64,000 bases of DNA from Richelia sp. SL_2_1 (GTDB taxonomy: Bacteria > Cyanobacteriota > Cyanobacteriia > Cyanobacteriales > Nostocaceae), in assembly GCA_012033205.1 (NCBI GenBank), contig JAAUSO010000008.1, forward strand, positions 22,578 through 86,577, in the 5' to 3' direction. The notes beneath the pieces are model-generated. The model was given only the letters and a program-made list of their open reading frames with translations, ran no database searches and had not been told where the DNA came from. The translations under genes and the position numbers were made by a program. Shown one piece after another: positions 5,318-64,000 of the stretch (its first letter is position 1; every line of letters starts with the position of its first letter).

Positions 5318-6457
5318 ATGATGGTGTCCGAATTTAAGCCCGGATTGGATGGTGTTCCCGCAGCCCAGTCTAGTATCAGTCATGTTGACGGGCAAAAGGG
5401 AATATTGGAATATCGTGGCATCAGAATTGAAGAACTAGCAAAAAAGAGTACTTTTCTCGAAACTGCTTATCTACTAATTTGGGGTGAATTACCGAATAAA
5501 GAAGAGCTAGCATTATTTGAACGTGAAGTTCAACAAAATAGACGGATAAAATACCGCATTCGCGACATGATGAAGTGTTTTCCCGAAAGCGGTCATCCCA
5601 TGGATGTTTTGCAAGCTTCAGCAGCAGCATTGGGTTTATTTTATTCCCGCCGCGATTTAAATAATCCAGCTTACATTAGAGATGCTGTGGTACGTCTGTT
5701 AGCTAGTATTCCGACTATGGTAGCAGCATTTGAACTAATGCGACGAGGTGATGACCCCGTGCGTCCTCATGATGAGCTAGACTATGCTGCCAACTTTTTG
5801 TATATGCTCCATGAGGAAAAACCAGACCCCTTAGCAGCGCGGATATTTGATGTTTGCTTGATACTTCATGCCGAACACACCATGAATGCTTCCACTTTCA
5901 GCGCTAGGGTGACAGCTTCCACTCTTACAGACCCCTATGCAGTAGTTGCAAGTGCAGTAGGAACCTTGGGTGGACCTTTACACGGTGGTGCGAACGAAGA
6001 AGTGATTGGGATGCTAGAAGAAATTGGTTCTATAGAAAACGTCCGCCCTTACGTTTTAGATTGTATTGAGCGCAAAACTAAAATAATGGGTTTTGGTCAT
6101 CGTGTTTATAAGGTAAAAGACCCACGCGCTCAGATTTTACAAAACTTAGCAGAAGAACTATTTGCCAAATTTGGGTATGACAAATACTATGACATTGCCC
6201 AAGAAATGGAACGAGTAGTAGAGGAAAAATTAGGTCATAAAGGTATTTATCCTAATGTTGACTTTTACTCTGGTTTAGTGTATAGGAAATTAGGCATTTC
6301 TACAGACTTTTTTACACCAGTATTTGCCATGGCTCGTGTTGCTGGTTGGTTAGCGCATTGGAAAGAACAGATTGCAGAAAACCGAATTTTCCGTCCTGGT
6401 CAGGTTTATAAAGGTCATCATCAAGTTGAATATGTCCATATAACTGAACGGGATTAA
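5318..6457 (+). CDS. gltA: Citrate synthase
   Basis: 379 aa; GILEYRGIRIEELA, HAEHTMNAST, GGPLHGGANEEV, GFGHRVYKVKDPRA, FTPVFAMARVAGW. Confidence 0.97.
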   Translation: MMVSEFKPGLDGVPAAQSSISHVDGQKGILEYRGIRIEELAKKSTFLETAYLLIWGELPNKEELALFEREVQQNRRIKYRIRDMMKCFPESGHPMDVLQASAAALGLFYSRRDLNNPAYIRDAVVRLLASIPTMVAAFELMRRGDDPVRPHDELDYAANFLYMLHEEKPDPLAARIFDVCLILHAEHTMNASTFSARVTASTLTDPYAVVASAVGTLGGPLHGGANEEVIGMLEEIGSIENVRPYVLDCIERKTKIMGFGHRVYKVKDPRAQILQNLAEELFAKFGYDKYYDIAQEMERVVEEKLGHKGIYPNVDFYSGLVYRKLGISTDFFTPVFAMARVAGWLAHWKEQIAENRIFRPGQVYKGHHQVEYVHITERD

Positions 6458-45249: not shown

Positions 45250-45831
45250 ATGACTATGACTCAAACCACAACAAAAAGTTTATATTCATTTGAAGAGTAC
45301 CTTACCTATGATGATGGTACAGATAATCGTTACGAACTTATTAATGGAACACTTGAAACGAAAATAATCACAACTTTCAGACATATTTTAATTACTGATT
45401 TAATCGAACAAAATTTCAAAGCACAAATTAAAAAGCTCAAGTTACCTTGGATGTGTTTTCGAGAAGCAGGAATTAGAACCGGGTGGAGAAAATCACGATT
45501 ATCTGATGTTTATGTTGTGACATCGGAACAAGTAATGGAATTTTTAGATCAGTCTGCTGTATGTCAATCTCCACCTTTACTAGTTGTAGAAGTTGTGAGT
45601 CCCGAATCAGTAAAGCGGGATTATCGTTATAAACGTTCGGAATATGCGGCTTTAGAAATACCTGAATATTGGATTGTAGACCCTATTGAATCAAAAGTCA
45701 CGGTTTTATTGCTTGAAGAAGGTTTATACGAAGATACAGAATTTATTAGTAATCAAACAATAGTTTCTCGGACTTTTTCCGAATTAGATTTAACCGTAGA
45801 ACAAGTGTTAGCTGCGGGAAATATCAATTAA
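45250..45831 (+). CDS. Uma2 family (DUF820) endonuclease-fold protein
   Basis: SFEEYLTYDDGTDNRYELINGTLE, SDVYVVTSEQ, PPLLVVEVVSPESVKRDYRYKRSEYAALEIPEYWIVDPIESKVTVL. Confidence 0.92.
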   Translation: MTMTQTTTKSLYSFEEYLTYDDGTDNRYELINGTLETKIITTFRHILITDLIEQNFKAQIKKLKLPWMCFREAGIRTGWRKSRLSDVYVVTSEQVMEFLDQSAVCQSPPLLVVEVVSPESVKRDYRYKRSEYAALEIPEYWIVDPIESKVTVLLLEEGLYEDTEFISNQTIVSRTFSELDLTVEQVLAAGNIN

Positions 45832-47022
45832 ATATGCGAACATTTCGATTAAAAATTATAATTATAAAGACGCTCAGTAAACTCACCGCAGCGCTGATTG
45901 TAAACATAAATGTATATCCGGTAGAAGTGGTAATTTTACCGCTAAGTATAGAAGCAGCAATTCCACCGATATATACTACAGAAACTTGTAATGTATAATC
46001 AGTAGCGGCTGTATCGCGATCGCATTTATCCATCATGGCACTAAGCAATGCGGTGTATGCCATACCTTGCAAGGCATTTACTGTTATCGTCACGGCGTAC
46101 AACACTGGTATATTACTGACACCATTTGCAGGTATTATATACAAAAGTGTGGCAATACTTGCCGCGAAACCAAATAAAATTAAGCAACGTATCCTTCCTA
46201 GTTTAGTAATTAAAACTCCCGCAATTAAAGCGCTGAAAATCCGAGCGCTGTAGCTGACAATTCCTAACATCAAACCGATATCTGACAGCGACAAACCTCT
46301 GTCAACAAAAAGTGGACGCAGCATTGTACCCGACATCATTTCTCCTCCCATGTACAATAAGAGGACTAAAAGCCACGGTAATATTTTGGGACGGGAAAGA
46401 AATTTAATAAAAGGTTGAAAATAAGATTTGAAAAACTAGATTTTTTGGGTTTGCAATTAAACTGTTCTTGATATAAAATTATTGGAATTAAAGTTAATAA
46501 CATTGTTAACGACATAATTATTAAACTGTATTTCCAACCGATGCGATCGAGTAAAATTAATACTCCGCCGCCGCCAATAATAGCCCCAAAAATATTACCT
46601 CCGGATTGAATTGCGTTACCAATTCCGCGTTCGTGGGGTTCTAATAAGTTTACCGCTAATGCATCGGTGGCTATATCTTGACTGGAAGAAAACAAAAAAG
46701 CGCAGAATATACAAACAATTAAAGTACTAAAATTTTCTTGAATATCAATAAATGCACATCCAAATGTTACAAATGCAAGTAGTAATTGAAAGCAAATAAT
46801 CCAGCCGCGATAATGTCCTAGTTTTGGTAAACTATAGCGGTCAATAAATGGCGACCAAAGGAATTTCAAGGCAGAAGGAAGAATCAAAAAACTCAAGAAA
46901 CCGATAGCATCCAGCGACATATTTTGCTGTCGCATAAAAACGGGTACGGTTTGAATAAAAAAGGTTGTAGGGATAAATTGAGCCGTGTAAAGTGCGGCTA
47001 GAAGGATTAGTTTAGATAGCAT
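45824..47022 (-). CDS. MFS transporter; apparent frame break near 46430
   Basis: 46366..47022 continues into 45824..46357 after a 1-nt shift: ...YFQPFIKFLSRPKILPWLLVLLLYMGGEMMSGTMLRPLFVDRGLSLSDIG; adjacent to a TonB receptor gene. Confidence 0.85.
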
Positions 47023-53430: not shown

Positions 53431-54060
53431 TTAACGTTTCTTAGTCAGAATTTCCTTTCTCGCTTTCTCAATATTCCGGTTTTGATTTAAGTCTTGCAAC
53501 ATAGATTCTAGTTGTTCCACCCGTTGCAGCAACGAGCAAATTACAGTAGCCTCTACATCTGGAAGCTTTCCATGTTCCAAAGGTGAAAGACTAACATCCT
53601 GTTTGCGAGAAATTTCTCGTCCAGGTATTCCCACTATCGTGCAACTTGGGGCAACATCTCGTAATACAACCGAACCCGCACCAATACGTGTGCGATCGCC
53701 AATTTGGATATTGCCTAAAACCGAAGCACCAGCACCGACAACAACGTTGTTACCGATAGTCGGATGGCGTTTTCCCGATTCTTTACCAGTACCACCGAGA
53801 GTCACACCTTGATAAATCAACGTGTAGTCTCCGACGATGGCGGTTTCACCAATCACAACTCCCATACCATGATCTATAAACACGCCTTTGCCAATTTGTG
53901 CGCCGGGGTGAATTTCAATTCCACTCAAAAATCTACCGATATGGGAAATCAAGCGGGGAATTAAATTAATTTTGCGACGATGCAACCAATGGGCTAGACG
54001 ATGCAAGCATAAAGCATGAAATCCAGGATAGCAGAGTAAAACCTCGGTTATTTCGTACAT
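53431..54060 (-). CDS. nifP: Serine O-acetyltransferase (NifP/CysE)
   Basis: [71 protein letters not shown] left-handed beta-helix repeats. Confidence 0.93.
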
Positions 54061-54838: not shown

Positions 54839-55207
54839 ATGATTTACTTTACTCGTAAACTAACTAAAAAGCCAATCAAAAAGTTCCTAATACCTATAAC
54901 TGTTGCGGTATTCCTAATAGCTAGTTTTGCTTTATCTCCTCTATCTGCACAAGCACTATCTACAAGCAGAAGTATAGATATAAGTACAGATTTATCTAGA
55001 GTTTACAAAGATATTGGCAATTCAGAAAATGGTATCTTGCTTGCGGAACATTCAAAAGGTAAACGTACATCAACTAAAGAGAAGCATCAAAAAGGAGAGG
55101 CACAGAAGAAAGATGCTGAAGCAAATAGAAAATTTAAAGAAGCAAAGAAAAAGGATAAGAAGGTGACGAAGGGGCAAATTAAGAAAGAGATGAAAAGTAA
55201 AAAGTAA
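54839..55207 (+). CDS. Small secreted protein: shared leader plus Lys/Glu-rich basic tail
   Basis: Signal peptide ending SPLSAQA; SIDISTDLSRVYKDIGNSENGILLAE then highly charged KGKRTSTKEKHQKGEAQKKDAEANRKFKEAKKKDKK. Confidence 0.75.
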   Translation: MIYFTRKLTKKPIKKFLIPITVAVFLIASFALSPLSAQALSTSRSIDISTDLSRVYKDIGNSENGILLAEHSKGKRTSTKEKHQKGEAQKKDAEANRKFKEAKKKDKKVTKGQIKKEMKSKK

Positions 55208-55363
55208 TAAAACAGGGCTTAGGCACTCGTTATAGATTTACAATGATTTAGAATTCCTTTTTTTCTTACAATGACTGTAAATATATTGTGGTGCATAAGT
55301 CCTATAAAAGTTATGAATTGTCCTTAAAACCAAATTACACAAATAAATCACTGAGAAACACAA

Positions 55364-55858
55364 ATGATTTATTTAGCCAAGAAATCAGTGACTAAGCACA
55401 ACATAATGAAGCAGTTTCTACTAACTACAACTCTTACAGTATTGTTAATAACAAGTTTTGCTTTATCTCCTCTACCTGTCGAGGCACAAAGAGTAACGGG
55501 AAGTGTAGATGCAAGTGTAGATATAAATCAAATTTATAGAGATGTTTCTAAGAGTATTAATGGTCTTAGAACACGAGATGCTTGTGTCAAAGCAATTCGA
55601 GAAACTGCTTACAGTAAAGTCAAGCAGGGTCGTAATGTAATGGTTTTCAACTTATCGCAGAACTATGAGAAAAACCTTAAAAACGCAAAATTTCAACAGT
55701 TCTCATGTGCTGGTAATAAGTATGGTCTTTGGATTTTTAAGAGCGGTAGATTCGTCAATAAAGGTGATGGTGGATTTATAAATTGGGCTTTTGATGGTAA
55801 TTGGAAAAGAACTGGTAGAGACCAAAAAACTGTGGTATTTCGTCCAATCAGGAAATGA
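55364..55858 (+). CDS. Small secreted protein: shared leader plus unrelated ~95-aa globular domain
   Basis: SFALSPLPVEAQRVTGSVDASVDINQIYRDV... then RTRDACVKAIRETAYSKVKQGRNVMVFNLSQ...KYGLWIFKSGRFVNKGDGGFINWAFDGNWKRTGRDQKTVVFRPIRK. Confidence 0.78.
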   Translation: MIYLAKKSVTKHNIMKQFLLTTTLTVLLITSFALSPLPVEAQRVTGSVDASVDINQIYRDVSKSINGLRTRDACVKAIRETAYSKVKQGRNVMVFNLSQNYEKNLKNAKFQQFSCAGNKYGLWIFKSGRFVNKGDGGFINWAFDGNWKRTGRDQKTVVFRPIRK

Positions 55859-55976
55859 ATAAGTTCTATTTTCAATCATGAAGCAAATCTAAAAATATAC
55901 TCCTATTGGCGAATGCCATTTTTGCCAGAAAAATCTTCAATCAATCATCAAAACTCATAAAAAAAGAGGAAAAGTT

Positions 55977-58478
55977 ATGCAAACAAATTCAATTCAAACA
56001 ACTCGCCGTAAAGTTGTAGGTATGATTGACGAACAAGAAAAAGTTCTACTTGAATTACTAGAAACACCAGATTTATTGAAAGAAAGTAGCGAAGATGGAG
56101 AACAAAAAACTAGTATTCAAGATGTAAATAAATGGCAACAAATTGTTACTAATGAAAGTCAAAAAGTTTGTGAACTAGAAATGGTTTTAGCAGTTGTAGG
56201 TACTATGAAAGCTGGTAAATCAACAACCATCAATACGATTGTTGGTTTCGAGGTATTACCTAATCGTAATTATCCAATGACCTCACTACCAACATTAATT
56301 AGGCATCGAATAGGTCAAAAAACACCTATCTTAAAATTTTCTAATCATCAACCCATTCAAAATATGGTTAAGGAAATCAGAAGAAAGTTGATGAATTTAC
56401 AATCAAGTACTAAACAATTAGAGTCACTAGAACTGTATAAAAATAAGGATGACGATACTAAGGAAGTAATTAGAAGAATTTGCAATGGGAATTTTAGTCC
56501 TTTTCAAGATACCTATCAAGGACAAGAAAACATATTCAATTTCTTGAAGATGCTTAATGATTTGATCAGGTTAGCTGGAAACGGTGATATTAAGGTTGAG
56601 CTTCCCATCGATAAGTATGAGAATGTAAATGATTTACCGATTATTGAAGTAGAGTTTTGCCATCTAGCTGATGTTGGGGAATTGTTCAAAGAAGGAGGAC
56701 AATTTTCCATATTAGACACTCCCGGTCCAAACGAATTTATGCTGGGTGATAATTTACGCAAGGTACTAAATTCTCAAATAGCAAGAGCATCAGCAGTATT
56801 AGCAGTTGTGGATTATAGCCAACTAAGATCCAACGCGGAGTATCAAATCCGTCAAGAACTAGAAAGTCAAGTTAAGCAGACTAAAGAACGTTTGTTTATC
56901 CTTGTCAATAAGTTTGACCAAACAGATCGTAATAGCATGAATTTTGAGGACGTAAAAAGTTATGTAGCGGAAAATTTTCTGCAACACCAAGTTACACAGG
57001 GTCGGGTATATCCAGTATCTGCTAAATATGGTTATCTTTCTAACTGTGTGTTAAATGAGATTAAAGAAAATTCTTGCTTACCGAATTATGAAAATGAAAA
57101 TAATCGTTGGATAGAAGATTTTGGTAAACTGGCATTTGGTGTTAACTGGAAAGAGGATATTCAGGATATAAATAAAGTTAAAAGTGCAGCAGAAAAGTTA
57201 TGGAATCACAGCAACTTTGAAAAACCTATCAATGAGGTAATTGTTAAAACCGCAGGTAAAGTCGGATGGATTAGTATACAAGCTGCTACCGACAAAATGC
57301 TCTTGATTGATAATCAATTGGCAAACTTTTTACAATTACGCAGTGGTGCTTTAAGCAAGGGTGTAGAAGAAATCGAACAATTGCTCAAAAATTTGACACA
57401 AAATATAAAGGAAATTGAGAATGCTGAATCCCAAGCTGAAAAAACCTTAAAAGACTTTATAGAAAACTCTACAGAAGCTGCTCATCTAAAGTACGAGACT
57501 ACTAAAAAAGTATTAAAAGATGCCTTGAAAGATTACTTTAAAAAAGGTCAAAGGCTAGAGCTTACCGAATTAAGGAAAAACCACCAGAAAGTGGAAGATG
57601 AAGAACTTCAAAAACAAAAAAATCCAAGAATGGGTAATTTACTTCAGAAATTTCTAAGTGGGAAGCGAAAAGAAAATAGAAACAAATCTGGTACAGGTTT
57701 GAGATATACTCGATTTAAATTTGATCCCAATAATCCAAAACTTACATTCAAATCTGAGGAAGAAGCTAGTCATTCCTTAGAACAACTCAATGAAACTATT
57801 ATTGGGATAATAAATGATTCTGCTGAAAGCTTAGAAAACGCATTGCTAGATTTATCAAATAATCTTGAAGAAACACTTCCTCAGATACTTGAACAAGAAA
57901 TCGGGGATATATTAAATAATGCAAAAAAACAACTAAAAGATGAGGGATTTACATTAAAAATAAACATCCCGAATATAGATTTTAAGTATGAAGGTGTTGA
58001 TTTTTATGAAATGTTAGTATCTAGTTTTGAACCGCATACCGAAAAAAAAGAAACAAAAAAAAGAGAAAAGATTCAAGGTTTAGCTGGTGAAATACCAAGA
58101 TTTTTGGGCAGATTATTTCAAAAAGACAATTGGGGGTATAAAGAATTAAAAATCGAGGAAGAACAACGTTTTGTTATTGTTGATATGGAACGTATTGAGG
58201 AAAGAATATTTAAATATTGGGATGATAGTATTGACAACATAAATGAAAATCATCAAGTTTTCTTTAAACAAAAACTGAAGCCTGTTTTAGACAAATATTT
58301 CAGTGAATTAAAGGATTATTTAAAGAAATTCCGGGGCGATTTGCAAGAAGGAATTGAGGATAAAAAGTTGAATCAAGAAAAACAGCAAGATTTACTGAAA
58401 AAAATGAATGTTCTCAAAGAACGGGTAGATTTACATAAACAAAATATTGAAACAATCCAGAATCATGTGAACCACTGA
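55977..58478 (+). CDS. Dynamin-family GTPase, CrfC/YjdA-like
   Basis: 833 aa; G1 VVGTMKAGKSTTINTIVGFEVLPNRNYPMTSLPTLIRH, G3 FSILDTPGPNEF, G4 FILVNKFDQTDRN; long helical C-terminus. Confidence 0.88.
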   Translation: MQTNSIQTTRRKVVGMIDEQEKVLLELLETPDLLKESSEDGEQKTSIQDVNKWQQIVTNESQKVCELEMVLAVVGTMKAGKSTTINTIVGFEVLPNRNYPMTSLPTLIRHRIGQKTPILKFSNHQPIQNMVKEIRRKLMNLQSSTKQLESLELYKNKDDDTKEVIRRICNGNFSPFQDTYQGQENIFNFLKMLNDLIRLAGNGDIKVELPIDKYENVNDLPIIEVEFCHLADVGELFKEGGQFSILDTPGPNEFMLGDNLRKVLNSQIARASAVLAVVDYSQLRSNAEYQIRQELESQVKQTKERLFILVNKFDQTDRNSMNFEDVKSYVAENFLQHQVTQGRVYPVSAKYGYLSNCVLNEIKENSCLPNYENENNRWIEDFGKLAFGVNWKEDIQDINKVKSAAEKLWNHSNFEKPINEVIVKTAGKVGWISIQAATDKMLLIDNQLANFLQLRSGALSKGVEEIEQLLKNLTQNIKEIENAESQAEKTLKDFIENSTEAAHLKYETTKKVLKDALKDYFKKGQRLELTELRKNHQKVEDEELQKQKNPRMGNLLQKFLSGKRKENRNKSGTGLRYTRFKFDPNNPKLTFKSEEEASHSLEQLNETIIGIINDSAESLENALLDLSNNLEETLPQILEQEIGDILNNAKKQLKDEGFTLKINIPNIDFKYEGVDFYEMLVSSFEPHTEKKETKKREKIQGLAGEIPRFLGRLFQKDNWGYKELKIEEEQRFVIVDMERIEERIFKYWDDSIDNINENHQVFFKQKLKPVLDKYFSELKDYLKKFRGDLQEGIEDKKLNQEKQQDLLKKMNVLKERVDLHKQNIETIQNHVNH

Positions 58479-58571
58479 ATTTTTAACAAAAAAGAAATAG
58501 AGCAACAAGAACCCCTCGCTAACAAAACAATTAATTTCTCTTCACAATTACACAAAGGAGTAGTAAATAAT

Positions 58572-60410
58572 ATGTCTATGCTTGAAGCTTCTCTAGAAAC
58601 TCTCAAAGGACTCTTCGCTGATAAACCAGAGGCTCTTAAAGTTTTTGACTTAGAAAGCTTAGAATCACAATTTTTGAAAGAAAAGCTTAGAAATAGTGGC
58701 GAATTATTTACAGGTGCAGTCAATCTATGGGTGACTGGACGTACTGGTTCGGGAAAAACCTCTTTGGGAAACAGCCTATTAGATTCAGATGTAATGAAGT
58801 CCAATGGTTTTCAAGATTGTACAGATTTTATTGGTTATTTTCAATTAACAAGCAACTTAAGATTTTGGGATACTCCTGGAATTTGTAGCAACATTAACTA
58901 TGAAAATATCAATCGAACTGCTCTAATGATGGAGCAAATTCCAGGGAACAAATTTTCTCGTCCACCTGTTGTTACTCTTAAAGATTCTGACTCTTTACTG
59001 ATTAAAGATTTCTCTAAGTGTGTTTCCCCAAGAATTAAACCTGAAGAAAAAAATGCCATAGTTGAGGAATGGCGTTCCTTGATGCAAAAAGAAGATATTC
59101 AGCCAGACGTTATTCTTTACGTTATGGCTCCACACATGAAATTTCTCGATCCGGATCGACAATACTTGGGAGAATTATTAGAAACCTGGAAATCTTTGAA
59201 AGACTCAGGTAAGAAGTGTATAGTCATTCCTATACTCAATGTTTTTAGAAAAGATGATGGTACTATTGTTCCTACCCCGCAAGAGATGACTTATGCGCGA
59301 CGAGAAATACCTGAAGTTTACAAAGCTGTATTTGGTGATGATAATTTTCCACCAGTTATTGAAATCAATTCAAAAACTGGTGAAGGCATCCCTAAAATTA
59401 CGGAAATTATCTGTCAAATTATTCCATCTGCTAAGATTGGCAATTTAGGAACTGTCTTAAAAGATGACCTTAAAAAGTATGCACAAAAAGAACGAGAGAA
59501 CCGCTACTGTAAAACTCTTAGCTTAATCTCTGGTCGCTTGGCTAGATATACAGTTGATAAAAATATTGACGGACAAAGTCTGCTTCAATCAGCTGCATCG
59601 GCAATTTGTGCTTATGGGGTTATGACCTTCAAGAGCTTGGATGCAATAAAAGATATCAAAGCTCAATTTGACTCGGTTGTTGAACAAGTTAAACAAGTTC
59701 AAGGAGCAAGAAGCGAGGACATCACTATTAAAGAAAATGTGATGGGGACAAAGGATATCACTCGTATTAAACCAACAGAACAAGAGGTAGAAGTTGAGTA
59801 TACAGAGTGGCGACCTGAGGAAAAAACAGAGACAATTGAGGAAGAAGTCGATGTACCTGTGGAAAGAACTAGTTTTTTCCCGCAAACCGTAGAAGTTCGA
59901 GGAATAGTTGATGTAACTAAGCCAAGGAGTTGGTTGGGAAAACTTTGGACGGGTGAAGACACATATACAGAGCAAGAAGTTGGTAACGTTGAGCGTAATG
60001 TTATTGTTCCATATCACTATATTGACTATGAGAAGCAAACTCGTGAGAGGGATGTGACAAAAACTGAATGGATTCAGGAAACCAATAAAAAACTAGAAAC
60101 TCGTATTGTCGGCTATGAAGAAGAAATTGTTGACACAGTTGAAGTGGTTTTAACACAGGTAGATAAAGTTGTTGGCACCAAGTATCTTGCAGGTGGATAT
60201 CCTGCAATTAAGTTTTTATTAGGTTTGGGTTTAGGAATTCAAAATTTCTGTAGTAACACGGGTGCAACATGGACGAAAAGTATACAGCAGAGTGAAATAT
60301 TAATAGAGAGTAAACTAAGCCCATATAAATCGCGTATTGACGAGTTAGTAGAAGATCCAGAAGGTGAGAAAAAATTGATCGAGCTTCTAGAAAACACCTT
60401 GATTGCATAA
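58572..60410 (+). CDS. P-loop GTPase with beta-rich/coiled C-terminal region and a hydrophobic segment near the C-terminus
   Basis: 612 aa; G1 LWVTGRTGSGKTSLGNSLL, QDCTDF, G3 LRFWDTPGI, atypical G4 PILNVFRKDDG, SKTGEGI; YTEW/KTEW repeats; AIKFLLGLGLGIQNF. Confidence 0.82.
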   Translation: MSMLEASLETLKGLFADKPEALKVFDLESLESQFLKEKLRNSGELFTGAVNLWVTGRTGSGKTSLGNSLLDSDVMKSNGFQDCTDFIGYFQLTSNLRFWDTPGICSNINYENINRTALMMEQIPGNKFSRPPVVTLKDSDSLLIKDFSKCVSPRIKPEEKNAIVEEWRSLMQKEDIQPDVILYVMAPHMKFLDPDRQYLGELLETWKSLKDSGKKCIVIPILNVFRKDDGTIVPTPQEMTYARREIPEVYKAVFGDDNFPPVIEINSKTGEGIPKITEIICQIIPSAKIGNLGTVLKDDLKKYAQKERENRYCKTLSLISGRLARYTVDKNIDGQSLLQSAASAICAYGVMTFKSLDAIKDIKAQFDSVVEQVKQVQGARSEDITIKENVMGTKDITRIKPTEQEVEVEYTEWRPEEKTETIEEEVDVPVERTSFFPQTVEVRGIVDVTKPRSWLGKLWTGEDTYTEQEVGNVERNVIVPYHYIDYEKQTRERDVTKTEWIQETNKKLETRIVGYEEEIVDTVEVVLTQVDKVVGTKYLAGGYPAIKFLLGLGLGIQNFCSNTGATWTKSIQQSEILIESKLSPYKSRIDELVEDPEGEKKLIELLENTLIA

Positions 60411-60546
60411 TATCAAGTTTTTTTGATTACTTGTAAATTCTGCAACACCTAACCCGCGTACTGCGGGCACCCTCCCCCGCAGTCGCTTACGATTAAAGTT
60501 CCCCGGATAAGTTTAAAAGTCACAAATAATACTTTTAAACTCAAGT

Positions 60547-60990
60547 ATGACTAACTCAAGCAATGGATTGGTTGGTATGTCAGAAATAATTAAAAAGACT
60601 TTAGTAAGCATCGCTGTTGCATTATCTTTAATGACTAGTTTGGCTTTGTCTCCTCTACCTGCTCAAGCACTACCTGTTAGCTCAAATGTAGATATGAGTG
60701 CAAATTTTACAAAAGCTAATCAAGATTTTGGCAATTTAGAAAATGGAATCTTGATTGCCCGCCGTGGAGGTAGCACTTTTACGCAAGACAAGGCTAAGAA
60801 AAAGGGAAAGGGTAAGGGAAAGGCTATGGCAAAGCTCAGAGAACAGCCCCTCGTCTGTTATTCGGATAAAAGATGTGAAACCCGCATCTGGCAAGGCAAT
60901 AGCCCACACAACTGCTGCACTAAAAGACAAGGTAAATCATTTCGCTTTGATAGTGATGGAAGATGCAGAAAGTGTAGTGCAGGATATTGA
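60547..60990 (+). CDS. Small secreted protein: shared leader plus basic linker and six-Cys C-terminal domain
   Basis: SLALSPLPAQALPVSSNVDMSANFTKANQDFGNLENGILIARR then KKKGKGKGK and VCYSDKRCETRIWQGNSPHNCCTKRQGKSFRFDSDGRCRKCSAGY. Confidence 0.78.
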   Translation: MTNSSNGLVGMSEIIKKTLVSIAVALSLMTSLALSPLPAQALPVSSNVDMSANFTKANQDFGNLENGILIARRGGSTFTQDKAKKKGKGKGKAMAKLREQPLVCYSDKRCETRIWQGNSPHNCCTKRQGKSFRFDSDGRCRKCSAGY

Positions 60991-61156
60991 TCCTAGAACA
61001 CACCTTGACCGCGTAATATCAAGTTCTCTTGATTTTTTATACCGTAGCACGCCTCCGCCCATCTTTCCCCTTCGGAAGAGAGTTGGGCAGGGGTAATGTG
61101 ACAACTACGGTACTATTTCTAATCGTTCGTACAAATATGATTCAAGGAAGGTAGAT

Positions 61157-63640
61157 ATGTTATTTAATTTCGAGCCTCCATCAATATCATCTATTCGTGC
61201 TAAATTCTTAATCGAAAAGTTGAATGAACTTTCAAGCGATTTTAGTCCAATTAGTCTCTGTGCTACAGGAAGAACTGGAAGTGGGAAAACAACTTTGGGC
61301 AATCGACTTATTGGGACTGATTACTTCATGCCTTCTACAGGAGAACAAGATTGTACTAATGAAGTTAATTTGGTCGAGTTTCCTAATGGGTTAAAATACT
61401 TCGATCTTCCCGGTGTTGCTAGCAAAAGAAAATTAGAAAACTATAATCGTGCAGCTCTTGATATTGAACAGCGTAGGGAGTTTGAAAATGCAGATAATTT
61501 AACCCTGTCACAGTACAAGGTAGACTGTGAACCCAAAAAAATAATTTTACAGTTTCAGAGTTTAGAGAAAAGCAGATACTTGAGCCGGATCTAATTCTAT
61601 ATATGATTGCTCCAGATAAGCAGTTTCTAGATGTAGATTGTCTTTATCTTGGGAATTTACTAAGTCGGTACAGTCAAGTGATTTATGTATTCAATATGTT
61701 CGCTGATAAGCAAACTGGTACTGTATATGCCACCGAACAAAATATCACAGATATTACCACTCGGATTAAAGAAGTTCATAATTTTGTGCTTGGTGAGAAC
61801 AACCAGCCAATTATAGTTCCTGTTAATTGTTGGACAGGTGAAGGTATTTCAGACTTAGTATCGCGCTCTTGCGAGATATTAGGTGGTGAGAAAGGTCAAC
61901 TTTTTAACGAATTAATCGACTACCAAGAAAGCAAGACACCAACTGAATATATCAATCGGCTAAAATACAGTTTTATTGATGTACTCGCTTATGTAAGTTG
62001 TGAGAAGCCAGAGGGTAGTTATAAATGCGACCAACCTATTCATGAAGCTTGTTATCAACTTTTAGATTTCCTAGTCGATCTTAAACTACAATCCGAGCAG
62101 AAATTTGACCTTTCAGATAACTGGATTAAAAGACTAATTGATGAAGCATTATCCCTAGAGTTTGAAGAAACCAGTAGTAATTCTAATATTTCACTCAAAG
62201 AAAAAATATCTTTTATTCAAAATAGTTTTGATTCAATCGAGCCTAGAATCGATAGTTTAATAGATAAGAAAGCTTCAGAAATTAGCGATTTGGAAGATTA
62301 TCGGCAGAAAATCAGTATTTTAGAAAATAAAGTTAATTCTAAAATTGAGGAATATTATTCAATAGAAAAACAAATCCCTACCATCCATGAAGAGATTGAG
62401 GACTTGAAGAATGAATGTAAATCACTGATAAACGAATCGACATCCTTGGAGCCACAGATTCAGTCCCATCAAAATAAATGTAATGCTTTGAAAAATGACC
62501 TAGTTTCATTTGAACAACAAAATGATTTGAATCGTCGTCGTAATCAATTACGTAATCGTCGCAAAGAACTGCAAAATCGTAAGAATAGATTTAATTCAGG
62601 AGTTTCTATGATTGAAAACAATCCTTTTTTATATGATGAGACAGTAGAAAACGCAGCATTATCAGCAATTTTCGATATAAAGCGGGAAGAAAATTCTCTT
62701 CAAGAAGAAGCCCGCGTTATAGATCAACTTGATAGTGAGCGCAAGAAAAAAGAAAGTAATCTTAAAAATGCTCAAAAATCACTTGATAAAATAATTAAGG
62801 AACGCGATCAAATTAAAAAAGATATCACTTATAAACAAAAGAATATTGAAAAAAAAAGCAAAGAAAATTAAAGCAAATCGTGAGTTACAAAAATATGTAC
62901 AAGAAGAAATACGGATAACCCAAGAAAAAACAAAATTTTATCGAGAAACTATTGAATTTTATAAAGAAATACTAAATTATTTCAATCAGGAATTCAAGAC
63001 AATTCAAGCAAAAATAGAATATTTAAATTCAAAATTCACAAATTTTAAAACCGAATATGCTAGTCTTCTAGAATTAGAAAATGTAAGTGAACAGCAAATT
63101 GCTTCTTTGAGAGAGAAACTCAACGATTGCTTGGAAGAAATGCATTCCTTCAATGAAGAAATTGCTGGTGTTCAAAGAGATATTCTAATATGCCGCGACA
63201 AACTCTCTATCAATAAATTAATCGGCAATGTGCTTGTAGAATGTACTACTCATCACTTTAATAATACGGTGGAATTTGAATATCAAGGTAGTACTTATAA
63301 CTGTTTAAATGAGAAAGGCTTAAACATGGTACTTTGCATCATCTATCTTGTTCTAGATGTAGAATTTACTCCTTCCCCAGTAAAGCAACAAGATAACCTA
63401 TTCAATTCTATTACTTTTGGGTTTTTTAACGGTTTGAAATCGATATTCCCTGGTCAAAAACCAAGTAGCTCCAAATCTTCTTTATTATCGACAAATATTT
63501 CAAGATTATTGAGCGAGTTAGGTGATTTTCCCAAAAATTCTGACACAACACAAGTTGCAAGCTGGTTGGAGCCTAACATTAGAAAACTGTTTACCGCTTC
63601 ATTTGATGAAATGCTTAGAAGAAAACTGAAGGTTATGTAG
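61157..63640 (+). CDS. P-loop GTPase fused to long coiled coil; reading frame split at A7 (61535-61541) and A9 (62849-62857)
   Basis: ORFs 61157..61594, 61603..62871, 62846..63640; G1 LCATGRTGSGKTTLGNRL, QDCTNE, G3 KYFDLPGV, VIYVFNMFADKQTG, NCWTGEGIS paralogous to 58572..60410; heptad-rich E/K/Q/L region 62200-63200. Confidence 0.78.
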
Positions 63641-63909
63641 AACTAAGACAAAAAGGTAGAGAGAGTTATTTAAAATATTATTTGAAATAATGGGTAAACT
63701 TAATGCGTAAAAAAATATTTAAAATTCAACTAAAAGAACATACTATTTTTGGTTTATAAAAACCTAATCAAATTTATAAAAATGAACTTATTTACGATAG
63801 TTATTTTTCCCAATTTTGCGGGGATAAGTTAATTTTAACCTACAATAAAATCCCTTTTTCATATTCAGTATTCATACATAAATAATTAGAAAAACCATGA
63901 CGAAAAACC

Positions 63910-64000
63910 ATGACAAAGACCATGATAAAAGACCAGCGCAAACGTGGTGTCCGAGCAACTGATAACGGACTTAAAAAATCGTAGAAGCGAAGGCTACTCG
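63910..64000 (+). CDS. Partial gene start: N-terminus resembling the HTH-like leader of cyanobacterial STAND/NTPase-type proteins; frame break in an A6 run (63973-63978); continues beyond window
   Basis: ATGACAAAGACCATGATAAAAGACCAGCGCAAACGTGGTGTCCGAGCAACTGATAACGGACTTAAAAAA[A]TCGTAGAAGCGAAGGCTACTCG = MTKTMIKDQRKRGVRATDNGLKKIVEAKATR if one A is restored. Confidence 0.4.

What the first reader, a model, noticed from the sequence alone, without database searches (positions are those of the whole stretch)
54839..63640. Candidate undescribed locus: three GTPases interleaved with three leader-sharing small secreted proteins
Seen directly: six same-strand genes in the order secreted A, secreted B, CrfC/YjdA-like dynamin-family GTPase, second P-loop GTPase, secreted C, third GTPase with coiled coil. 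Established knowledge: bacterial dynamin-like proteins often occur in sets, remodel membranes, and include members linked to toxin/vesicle export (LeoA-type) and to antiphage or membrane-stress protection. Inference: dynamin-type GTPases packaged with exported basic/Cys-rich proteins could form a membrane-remodelling export, antagonism or defence system. I do not recognise this combination as a named system.
Basis: partly seen in the sequence, partly recalled or inferred. Interest (0 to 1): 0.88.

Follow-up and report, generated by a model that had tools for sequence, protein, structure and literature searches.

The report
Mobile GTPase pair with secreted proteins
A cyanobacterial genome carries a transferred block of genes in which two partner membrane-type GTPases, each predicted to hold out a very long arm, sit among small positively charged exported proteins built on one shared export leader; the same company is found in two other genomes, which suggests a linked defence- or envelope-type system whose job is still unproven.

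Summary
In detail: six same-strand genes at 54839-63640, three exported proteins sharing a leader and three GTPases. One correction: the third GTPase is split by two frameshifts at A-tracts, probably assembly errors. It is not one three-GTPase system. (a) GTPases 2 and 3 form a conserved tandem pair (13 of 244 order genomes; also giant sulphur bacteria), horizontally moved. Models give GTPase 2 a ~70-residue-strand beta-ribbon arm and a GTPase 3 homologue a ~135-residue coiled-coil arm; arm types change together across genomes. (b) The CrfC-like gene is an RdcA-type dynamin that occurs independently and lacks its RdcB partner here. (c) The leader proteins are tied to the pair: strong leader hits occur only in the window genome, Hyella patelloides and Calothrix parasitica NIES-267, always clustered around the pair; in the genus, two of eight genomes have both and six have neither. 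The window's contig continues into another contig with a fourth GTPase and a fourth leader protein, giving a ~17 kb island inserted between cysE and the nif region. Best reading: a mobile heterotypic IRG/dynamin-like GTPase pair with co-inherited cationic envelope proteins, probably protective. Function is inferred, not shown.

The parts
54839..55207 (+). secA: exported protein, shared leader plus Lys-rich mature part (122 aa)
   Evidence: orthologue 60% over 107 aa in NIES-267 (L143:11043-11429)
55364..55858 (+). secB: exported protein, shared leader plus conserved ~105-aa domain (VMVFNL ... GDGGxINW)
   Evidence: orthologues in Hyella (59%) and NIES-267 (52%) with leader, isolated domain in other genomes
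55977..58478 (+). RdcA/CrfC-like dynamin-family GTPase (833 aa), independent module
58572..60410 (+). G2: first member of the conserved IRG/dynamin-like GTPase pair, predicted beta-ribbon arm (residues 381-538)
60547..60990 (+). secC: exported protein, shared leader plus basic stretch and six-Cys C-terminus (147 aa), in the slot between G2 and G3
61157..63640 (+). G3: second member of the pair, coiled-coil arm type, frame broken at ~61535 and ~62849
   Evidence: model of intact homologue
54874..55015 (+). leader repeat copy 1 (142 nt; copies 2 and 3 at 55405-55546 and 60588-60729)
60387..60435 (+). 49-nt direct repeat at the G2 3' end; second copy 60993-61041 (82%) lies after secC, so the secC cassette is flanked
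63788..64000 (+). 213-bp overlap with the start of contig C305 (start of an HTH gene); the island continues there with GTPase 4, a 153-aa protein, the fourth leader protein, a WD40 protein and an HTH-NB-ARC protein, then qor and nif
53431..54060 (-). cysE, left border of the island; in congeners followed within a few kb by qor and the nif cluster

Best explanation
The locus is the left part of a ~17 kb horizontally acquired island. Its core is a two-gene module, G2 and G3: partner IRG/dynamin-like GTPases inferred to meet through their G domains at a membrane while projecting long arms (beta-ribbon in G2, coiled coil in G3) that bridge or probe a membrane. Around this core sits a family of Sec-exported, strongly cationic proteins that keep one leader and vary the mature part; they travel with the GTPase pair and most likely act in the envelope or outside the cell as its exported partners or effectors. 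The RdcA-like dynamin and the fourth GTPase are add-on modules. The overall role is most likely protection against invaders or membrane damage. Shown: gene content, pairing, leader-pair linkage, cationic character, island borders, and a tree that implies transfer. Predicted by model: the arms. Inferred: membrane action, contact between the GTPases, role of the secreted proteins, protective function.
For: G2 followed by G3 in all 11 other order loci with sequence. Leader genes only beside the pair in three genomes, two of them with G2 from different clades; presence and absence match in 8 of 8 congeners. Recurring leader-protein types A, B and Arg/Ser-rich, under purifying selection. Cationic mature parts against controls. 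Sister relation to Hyella and Thiomargarita G2 rather than to the congener. Insertion between cysE and qor relative to congeners. Arm types co-vary in 16 of 17 pairs. Fold and sequence neighbours are IRG, GIMAP, EHD, mitofusin and Cj-DLP, membrane or immunity GTPases. NB-ARC/NACHT genes near all three leader clusters.
Against: Most G2/G3 pairs lack leader proteins. No defence or membrane assay. PADLOC matches cover only ~50-75 residues of the G domain. The distal half of the G2 arm model is low confidence. NIES-267 breaks the arm rule. NB-ARC genes are common in such genomes and no background rate was measured. G3 is frame-broken as sequenced. Two of the three leader genomes are congeners.
Confidence: 0.42

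Rival explanations
1. Cohabitation only: a recombination-prone accessory island collected a GTPase pair, an RdcA-like dynamin, a STAND ATPase and a tandemly duplicating secreted-protein family with no shared function.
For: The RdcA-like gene and the secB domain occur elsewhere on their own; the G2-G3 slot holds PIN or NUDIX genes in other genomes; tyrosine-recombinase-like genes lie next to the insertion site.
Against: Leader genes track the pair in all three genomes and across congeners, beside two divergent G2 lineages; chance of genome co-occurrence alone is about 0.003 before adjacency.
Confidence: 0.32
2. Export machine: the GTPases drive release of the cationic and Cys-rich proteins, for instance in vesicles as proposed for LeoABC, for antagonism between cells.
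For: Secreted proteins adjoin the pair; G domains give partial LeoBC and LeoA matches; LeoABC was linked to vesicle-associated release (PMC4159319).
Against: The leaders look like ordinary Sec signals that need no extra machine; most pairs have no leader protein; no toxin or immunity domain recognised.
Confidence: 0.14
3. Decaying remnant: the pair is no longer functional in the window genome.
For: Two frameshifts in G3; a ~110-bp insert with inverted ends in Hyella G2; a G3 remnant in NIES-267.
Against: Both G3 breaks lie at A-tracts in a contig with other homopolymer discrepancies; G2 and RdcA are intact; orthologous secreted genes show purifying selection.
Confidence: 0.12

Closest known systems
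Paired bacterial dynamin-like proteins (Cj-DLP1/2; B. subtilis DynA; PMC6104087, PMC8844932)
   Same: Two large GTPases encoded side by side, with long extensions beyond the G domain; membrane tethering or phage protection shown for known members
   Different: No full-length fold match; predicted arms are a beta-ribbon (G2) and a coiled-coil hairpin (G3) rather than helical neck and trunk; lipid binding untested
Eleos / LeoA-LeoBC (PADLOC models; LeoABC of ETEC, PMC4159319)
   Same: Two-gene GTPase arrangement; partial G-domain profile matches
   Different: Match covers only ~50-75 residues; no LeoA fold among the listed structure hits; no defence data
Vertebrate IRG (p47) and GIMAP immunity GTPases
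   Same: Closest solved relatives of the G2 G domain; IRG-like GTPases of cyanobacteria were already noted in 2005 (PMC1297648)
   Different: Whole-protein TM-score low; arms have no counterpart; the 2005 paper could not establish kinship
RdcA-RdcB (CrfC/YjdA-YjcZ), E. coli (PMC6510439)
   Same: The first GTPase of the locus belongs with RdcA by full-length profile match
   Different: Far below the equivalog cut-off; partner RdcB missing from the genome
DO-GTPase conflict systems (PMC7159879)
   Same: Paired TRAFAC GTPases with variable companions in bacteria, often multicellular
   Different: No DO-GTPase or GAP1 match in Pfam; those systems are reported nearly absent from cyanobacteria

Membership tests
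RdcA/CrfC-type dynamin (gene 55977-58478) | Dynamin-type G domain and full-length CrfC profile match | tested here: inconclusive
   Dynamin_N 9.8e-17; PRK09866 residues 42-809, 437 bits against a cut-off of 1146
RdcA/CrfC-type dynamin (gene 55977-58478) | RdcB/YjcZ partner | tested here: not met
   PF13990 absent from the window genome, present in two control genomes with close homologues
Eleos/Leo (LeoA + LeoBC) | Full-length match to LeoA and LeoBC | tested here: not met
   Only ~50-75 residues of the G domain match in the window proteins; best E among homologues 8e-12, extent not shown
Eleos/Leo (LeoA + LeoBC) | Two adjacent GTPase genes | tested here: met
   G2-G3 tandem order conserved
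Eleos/Leo (LeoA + LeoBC) | Anti-phage or vesicle-release activity | not testable with these tools
   needs experiment
IRG / GIMAP GTPases | Pfam AIG1 match over gathering, or whole IRG fold | tested here: not met
   AIG1 22.6 bits against 27; PDB profile match restricted to the G domain; TM-scores 0.23 and 0.35 to IIGP1
Paired membrane-remodelling GTPases (BDLP pairs) | Heterotypic pair in one operon with long extension beyond the G domain | tested here: met
   gene order; models; operon transcription itself not tested
Paired membrane-remodelling GTPases (BDLP pairs) | Membrane binding and tethering | not testable with these tools
   only a weak hint: hydrophobic G2 arm tips in some homologues, amphipathic in the window
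DO-GTPase conflict systems | DO-GTPase domain with GAP1 partner | tested here: not met
   no such Pfam match in the eight cluster ORFs; reported nearly absent from cyanobacteria
Polymorphic secreted effectors | Shared N-terminal part with varying C-terminal parts | tested here: met
Polymorphic secreted effectors | Toxin domain plus cognate immunity gene | tested here: inconclusive
   no known toxin or immunity domain found by profile

The most novel reading that the evidence does not exclude
A new class of mobile envelope-defence or antagonism machine: two IRG-like GTPases whose long arms co-vary in type (beta-ribbon with beta-rich, or long ribbon with coiled coil) work as one device with a family of Sec-exported cationic proteins that share a leader and exchange their mature parts.
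Probability: 0.2. Interest if true: 0.85.

Novelty: new variant of a known kind. Interest (0 to 1): 0.55.

Why it matters
Bacterial dynamin- and IRG-like GTPases usually come in pairs, but their partners and purpose are mostly unknown. Here a pair is tied to a defined set of exported proteins and carries predicted arms for which the PDB search found no whole-protein match, with arm type changing together in both partners. That gives a testable two-protein machine and a concrete list of candidate partners in cyanobacteria and giant sulphur bacteria.

Tried and rejected
One three-GTPase system: rejected, as the CrfC-like gene is independent and absent from the Hyella cluster. DO-GTPase system: rejected. 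Phage or plasmid carriage of G2: no support; no plasmid match for secC. Coiled-coil gene found upstream of G2 at other loci: no match in the window genome. RNA element: none at gathering. Promoter and terminator scan: no more sites than in shuffles. PDB sequence match for the secB domain: none convincing. Leader hits weaker than about 1e-7 in some 50 other genomes: treated mainly as signal-peptide background; G376, G322 and G210 were inspected and had no GTPase pair in the flanks, though two of them carry secB-like proteins.

Full report
What is there. The secreted genes share a leader: three 142-nt copies at 70% identity cover only the leader region, and the leader ends in a signal-peptidase-like site (AQA, VEA). 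By inspection it is Sec-like, with no lipobox and no twin-arginine motif. The mature parts differ: Lys-rich (A), a ~105-residue conserved domain (B), six Cys (C). Nine of the ten leader proteins found across three genomes are strongly cationic after the leader (+0.11 to +0.19 per residue) against a mean of 0.013 (sd 0.078) for 54 small signal-bearing ORFs in unrelated loci; the exception is a 777-aa protein of NIES-267.

The third GTPase is broken in the sequence as given. Homologous G3 proteins align to frame 2, then frame 1, then frame 2 again, with breaks at ~61535 (A7) and ~62849 (A9). Assembly error is the more likely cause: the end of the contig and the start of contig C305 overlap by 213 bases with one A-run length difference and two substitutions, and an MFS gene at 45824-47022 in the same contig is also split. 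This is an inference; read data are needed.

Beyond the window. The window ends at its contig's end. The overlap leads into C305, which carries a small HTH gene, a fourth GTPase (MMR_HSR1 plus DUF697), a 153-aa protein, a fourth leader protein (leader E 1e-9), a WD40 protein and an HTH-NB-ARC protein, and then qor and the nif genes (nif names by inspection). In the three congeners with enough sequence, cysE is followed within a few kilobases by qor and the same nif genes. The window genome therefore has an island of about 17 kb between cysE and qor. The sequence overlap and the shared gene order support the joint independently.

GTPases 2 and 3 are one unit. A search of 244 genomes of the order found G2 in 13. 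In all 11 other loci with sequence on the G3 side, a G3 homologue follows on the same strand. A scan of 85,462 species representatives gave 18 loci, in cyanobacteria and in Thiotrichaceae (Thiomargarita, Parabeggiatoa). Exceptions without G3 are Parabeggiatoa, Xenococcus (two G2-type proteins) and a disrupted copy in Dulcicalothrix. The slot between G2 and G3 varies: PIN genes in three genomes, a NUDIX gene in NIES-267, secC in the window, nothing elsewhere. A 49-nt direct repeat of the G2 3' end flanks secC, as if a cassette had been inserted or duplicated there.

Transfer. In a maximum-likelihood tree the window's G2 is sister to that of Hyella patelloides (72% identity, support 100/99), then to Thiomargarita, while the congener NIES-267 falls in the other major clade.

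Leader linkage. The leader profile gave very strong hits (E below 1e-10) in only two of 390 order genomes, the window's own and Hyella. In Calothrix parasitica NIES-267, a congener, it found four leader genes within 38 kb around the G2/G3 pair, one of them the divergent neighbour of G2, another followed by a G3 remnant. Within the genus two of eight genomes have leaders and the pair; six have neither. Types recur: A in the window and NIES-267, B in all three, an Arg/Ser-rich type in NIES-267 and Hyella. From prevalence alone the chance that both other leader genomes carry the pair is about 0.003; adjacency makes it smaller, though this figure ignores shared ancestry. dN well below dS shows purifying selection on the orthologues. 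In the window the leaders of different types are closer at silent sites (dS 0.5-0.6) than the mature parts are to their orthologues, which hints at exchange of leaders between paralogues; with about 60 codons this is only a hint.

The CrfC-like gene. It matches the CrfC profile over most of its length but far below the equivalog cut-off. Its relatives are in 48 of 244 genomes. The closest sit in an operon with a YjcZ/RdcB gene and a patatin, and enterobacterial plasmids carry the RdcA-RdcB pair. The window genome has no RdcB match (with positive controls). It is best seen as an add-on.

Structure. The G2 model (mean pLDDT 79, pTM 0.57) has a G domain, helices, and a beta-hairpin of two ~70-residue strands (381-451 and 464-538), roughly 20 nm long, whose distal half is low confidence. 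A G3 homologue (Phormidium; mean pLDDT 76, pTM 0.49) has a G domain and an antiparallel coiled coil of 137 and 132 residues, also roughly 20 nm (lengths computed from standard rise per residue). Fold searches matched mainly G domains: Era, IRG, GIMAP2, EHD, mitofusin, Cj-DLP. Across 17 pairs, G2 arms of 112-114 residues go with short beta-rich G3 arms (8 pairs) and G2 arms of 150 or more with long coiled-coil G3 arms (8 pairs, the window included); NIES-267 is the exception, its G3 arm being a highly acidic stretch. The pairs are not independent, but the window and Calothrix clades sit together on the tree and differ in both arms, so the change was concerted at least once. In several genomes the G2 arm tip is hydrophobic enough to enter a membrane; in the window it is only amphipathic.

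Mechanism. The most likely reading is a heterotypic pair acting at the plasma or thylakoid membrane, as shown for Cj-DLP1/2 (PMC6104087), with exported cationic proteins on the other side. A protective role is favoured by the sporadic, mobile distribution, NB-ARC/NACHT neighbours in all three leader clusters, the partial Leo match, and the precedent of DynA (PMC8844932). NB-ARC genes are common in such genomes and no background rate was measured, so that point is weak. The main rival is plain cohabitation in a hypervariable island.

Known or new. IRG-like GTPases of cyanobacteria were noted in 2005 without function (PMC1297648). My searches of the paper library found no description of this pair, its arms, or its link to leader proteins; the library lacks most subscription papers. 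I rate it a new variant of a known kind (paired membrane GTPases), with an unproven but testable link to secreted partners.

Noticed in passing
window 45824-47022 (-): An MFS transporter gene is split into two frames, a second sign of frame errors or decay in this contig.
   Followed up: partly
L032 about 5795-5905 (Hyella patelloides): G2 is interrupted by a ~110-bp insert with terminal inverted repeats (GTTCGGTTAG...), MITE-like.
   Followed up: partly
L082 4941-9439; L083 7685-11986: RdcA-RdcB-patatin operons in cyanobacteria: a dynamin-type GTPase with a patatin-type phospholipase gene, possibly a defence system of its own.
   Followed up: partly
L093 8744-11641 (Xenococcus): A G2-type GTPase fused behind pentapeptide-like repeats and a Ser/Thr-kinase-like region, next to a second G2-type gene (domains by inspection).
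   Followed up: no
L096 14289-17309 (Phormidium): An HSP70-TPR fusion directly downstream of G2-G3.
   Followed up: partly
L157, L158, L159: The secB domain also occurs in three contigs of the viral collection.
   Followed up: no
L099 12623-14158 (NIES-267): G3 has a hyper-acidic Asp/Glu-rich arm in place of the usual beta-rich or coiled-coil arm.
   Followed up: no
L103 14342-15874; L042 5967-7516 (Moorena): Two paralogous ~180-aa signal-bearing proteins converge on the end of G3; they do not match the window's leader family.
   Followed up: no
L036 9842-10478; L097 11981-12609; L094 3958-4371: PIN-domain genes, with a small antitoxin-like gene before two of them, sit between G2 and G3 where the window has secC.
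   Followed up: partly
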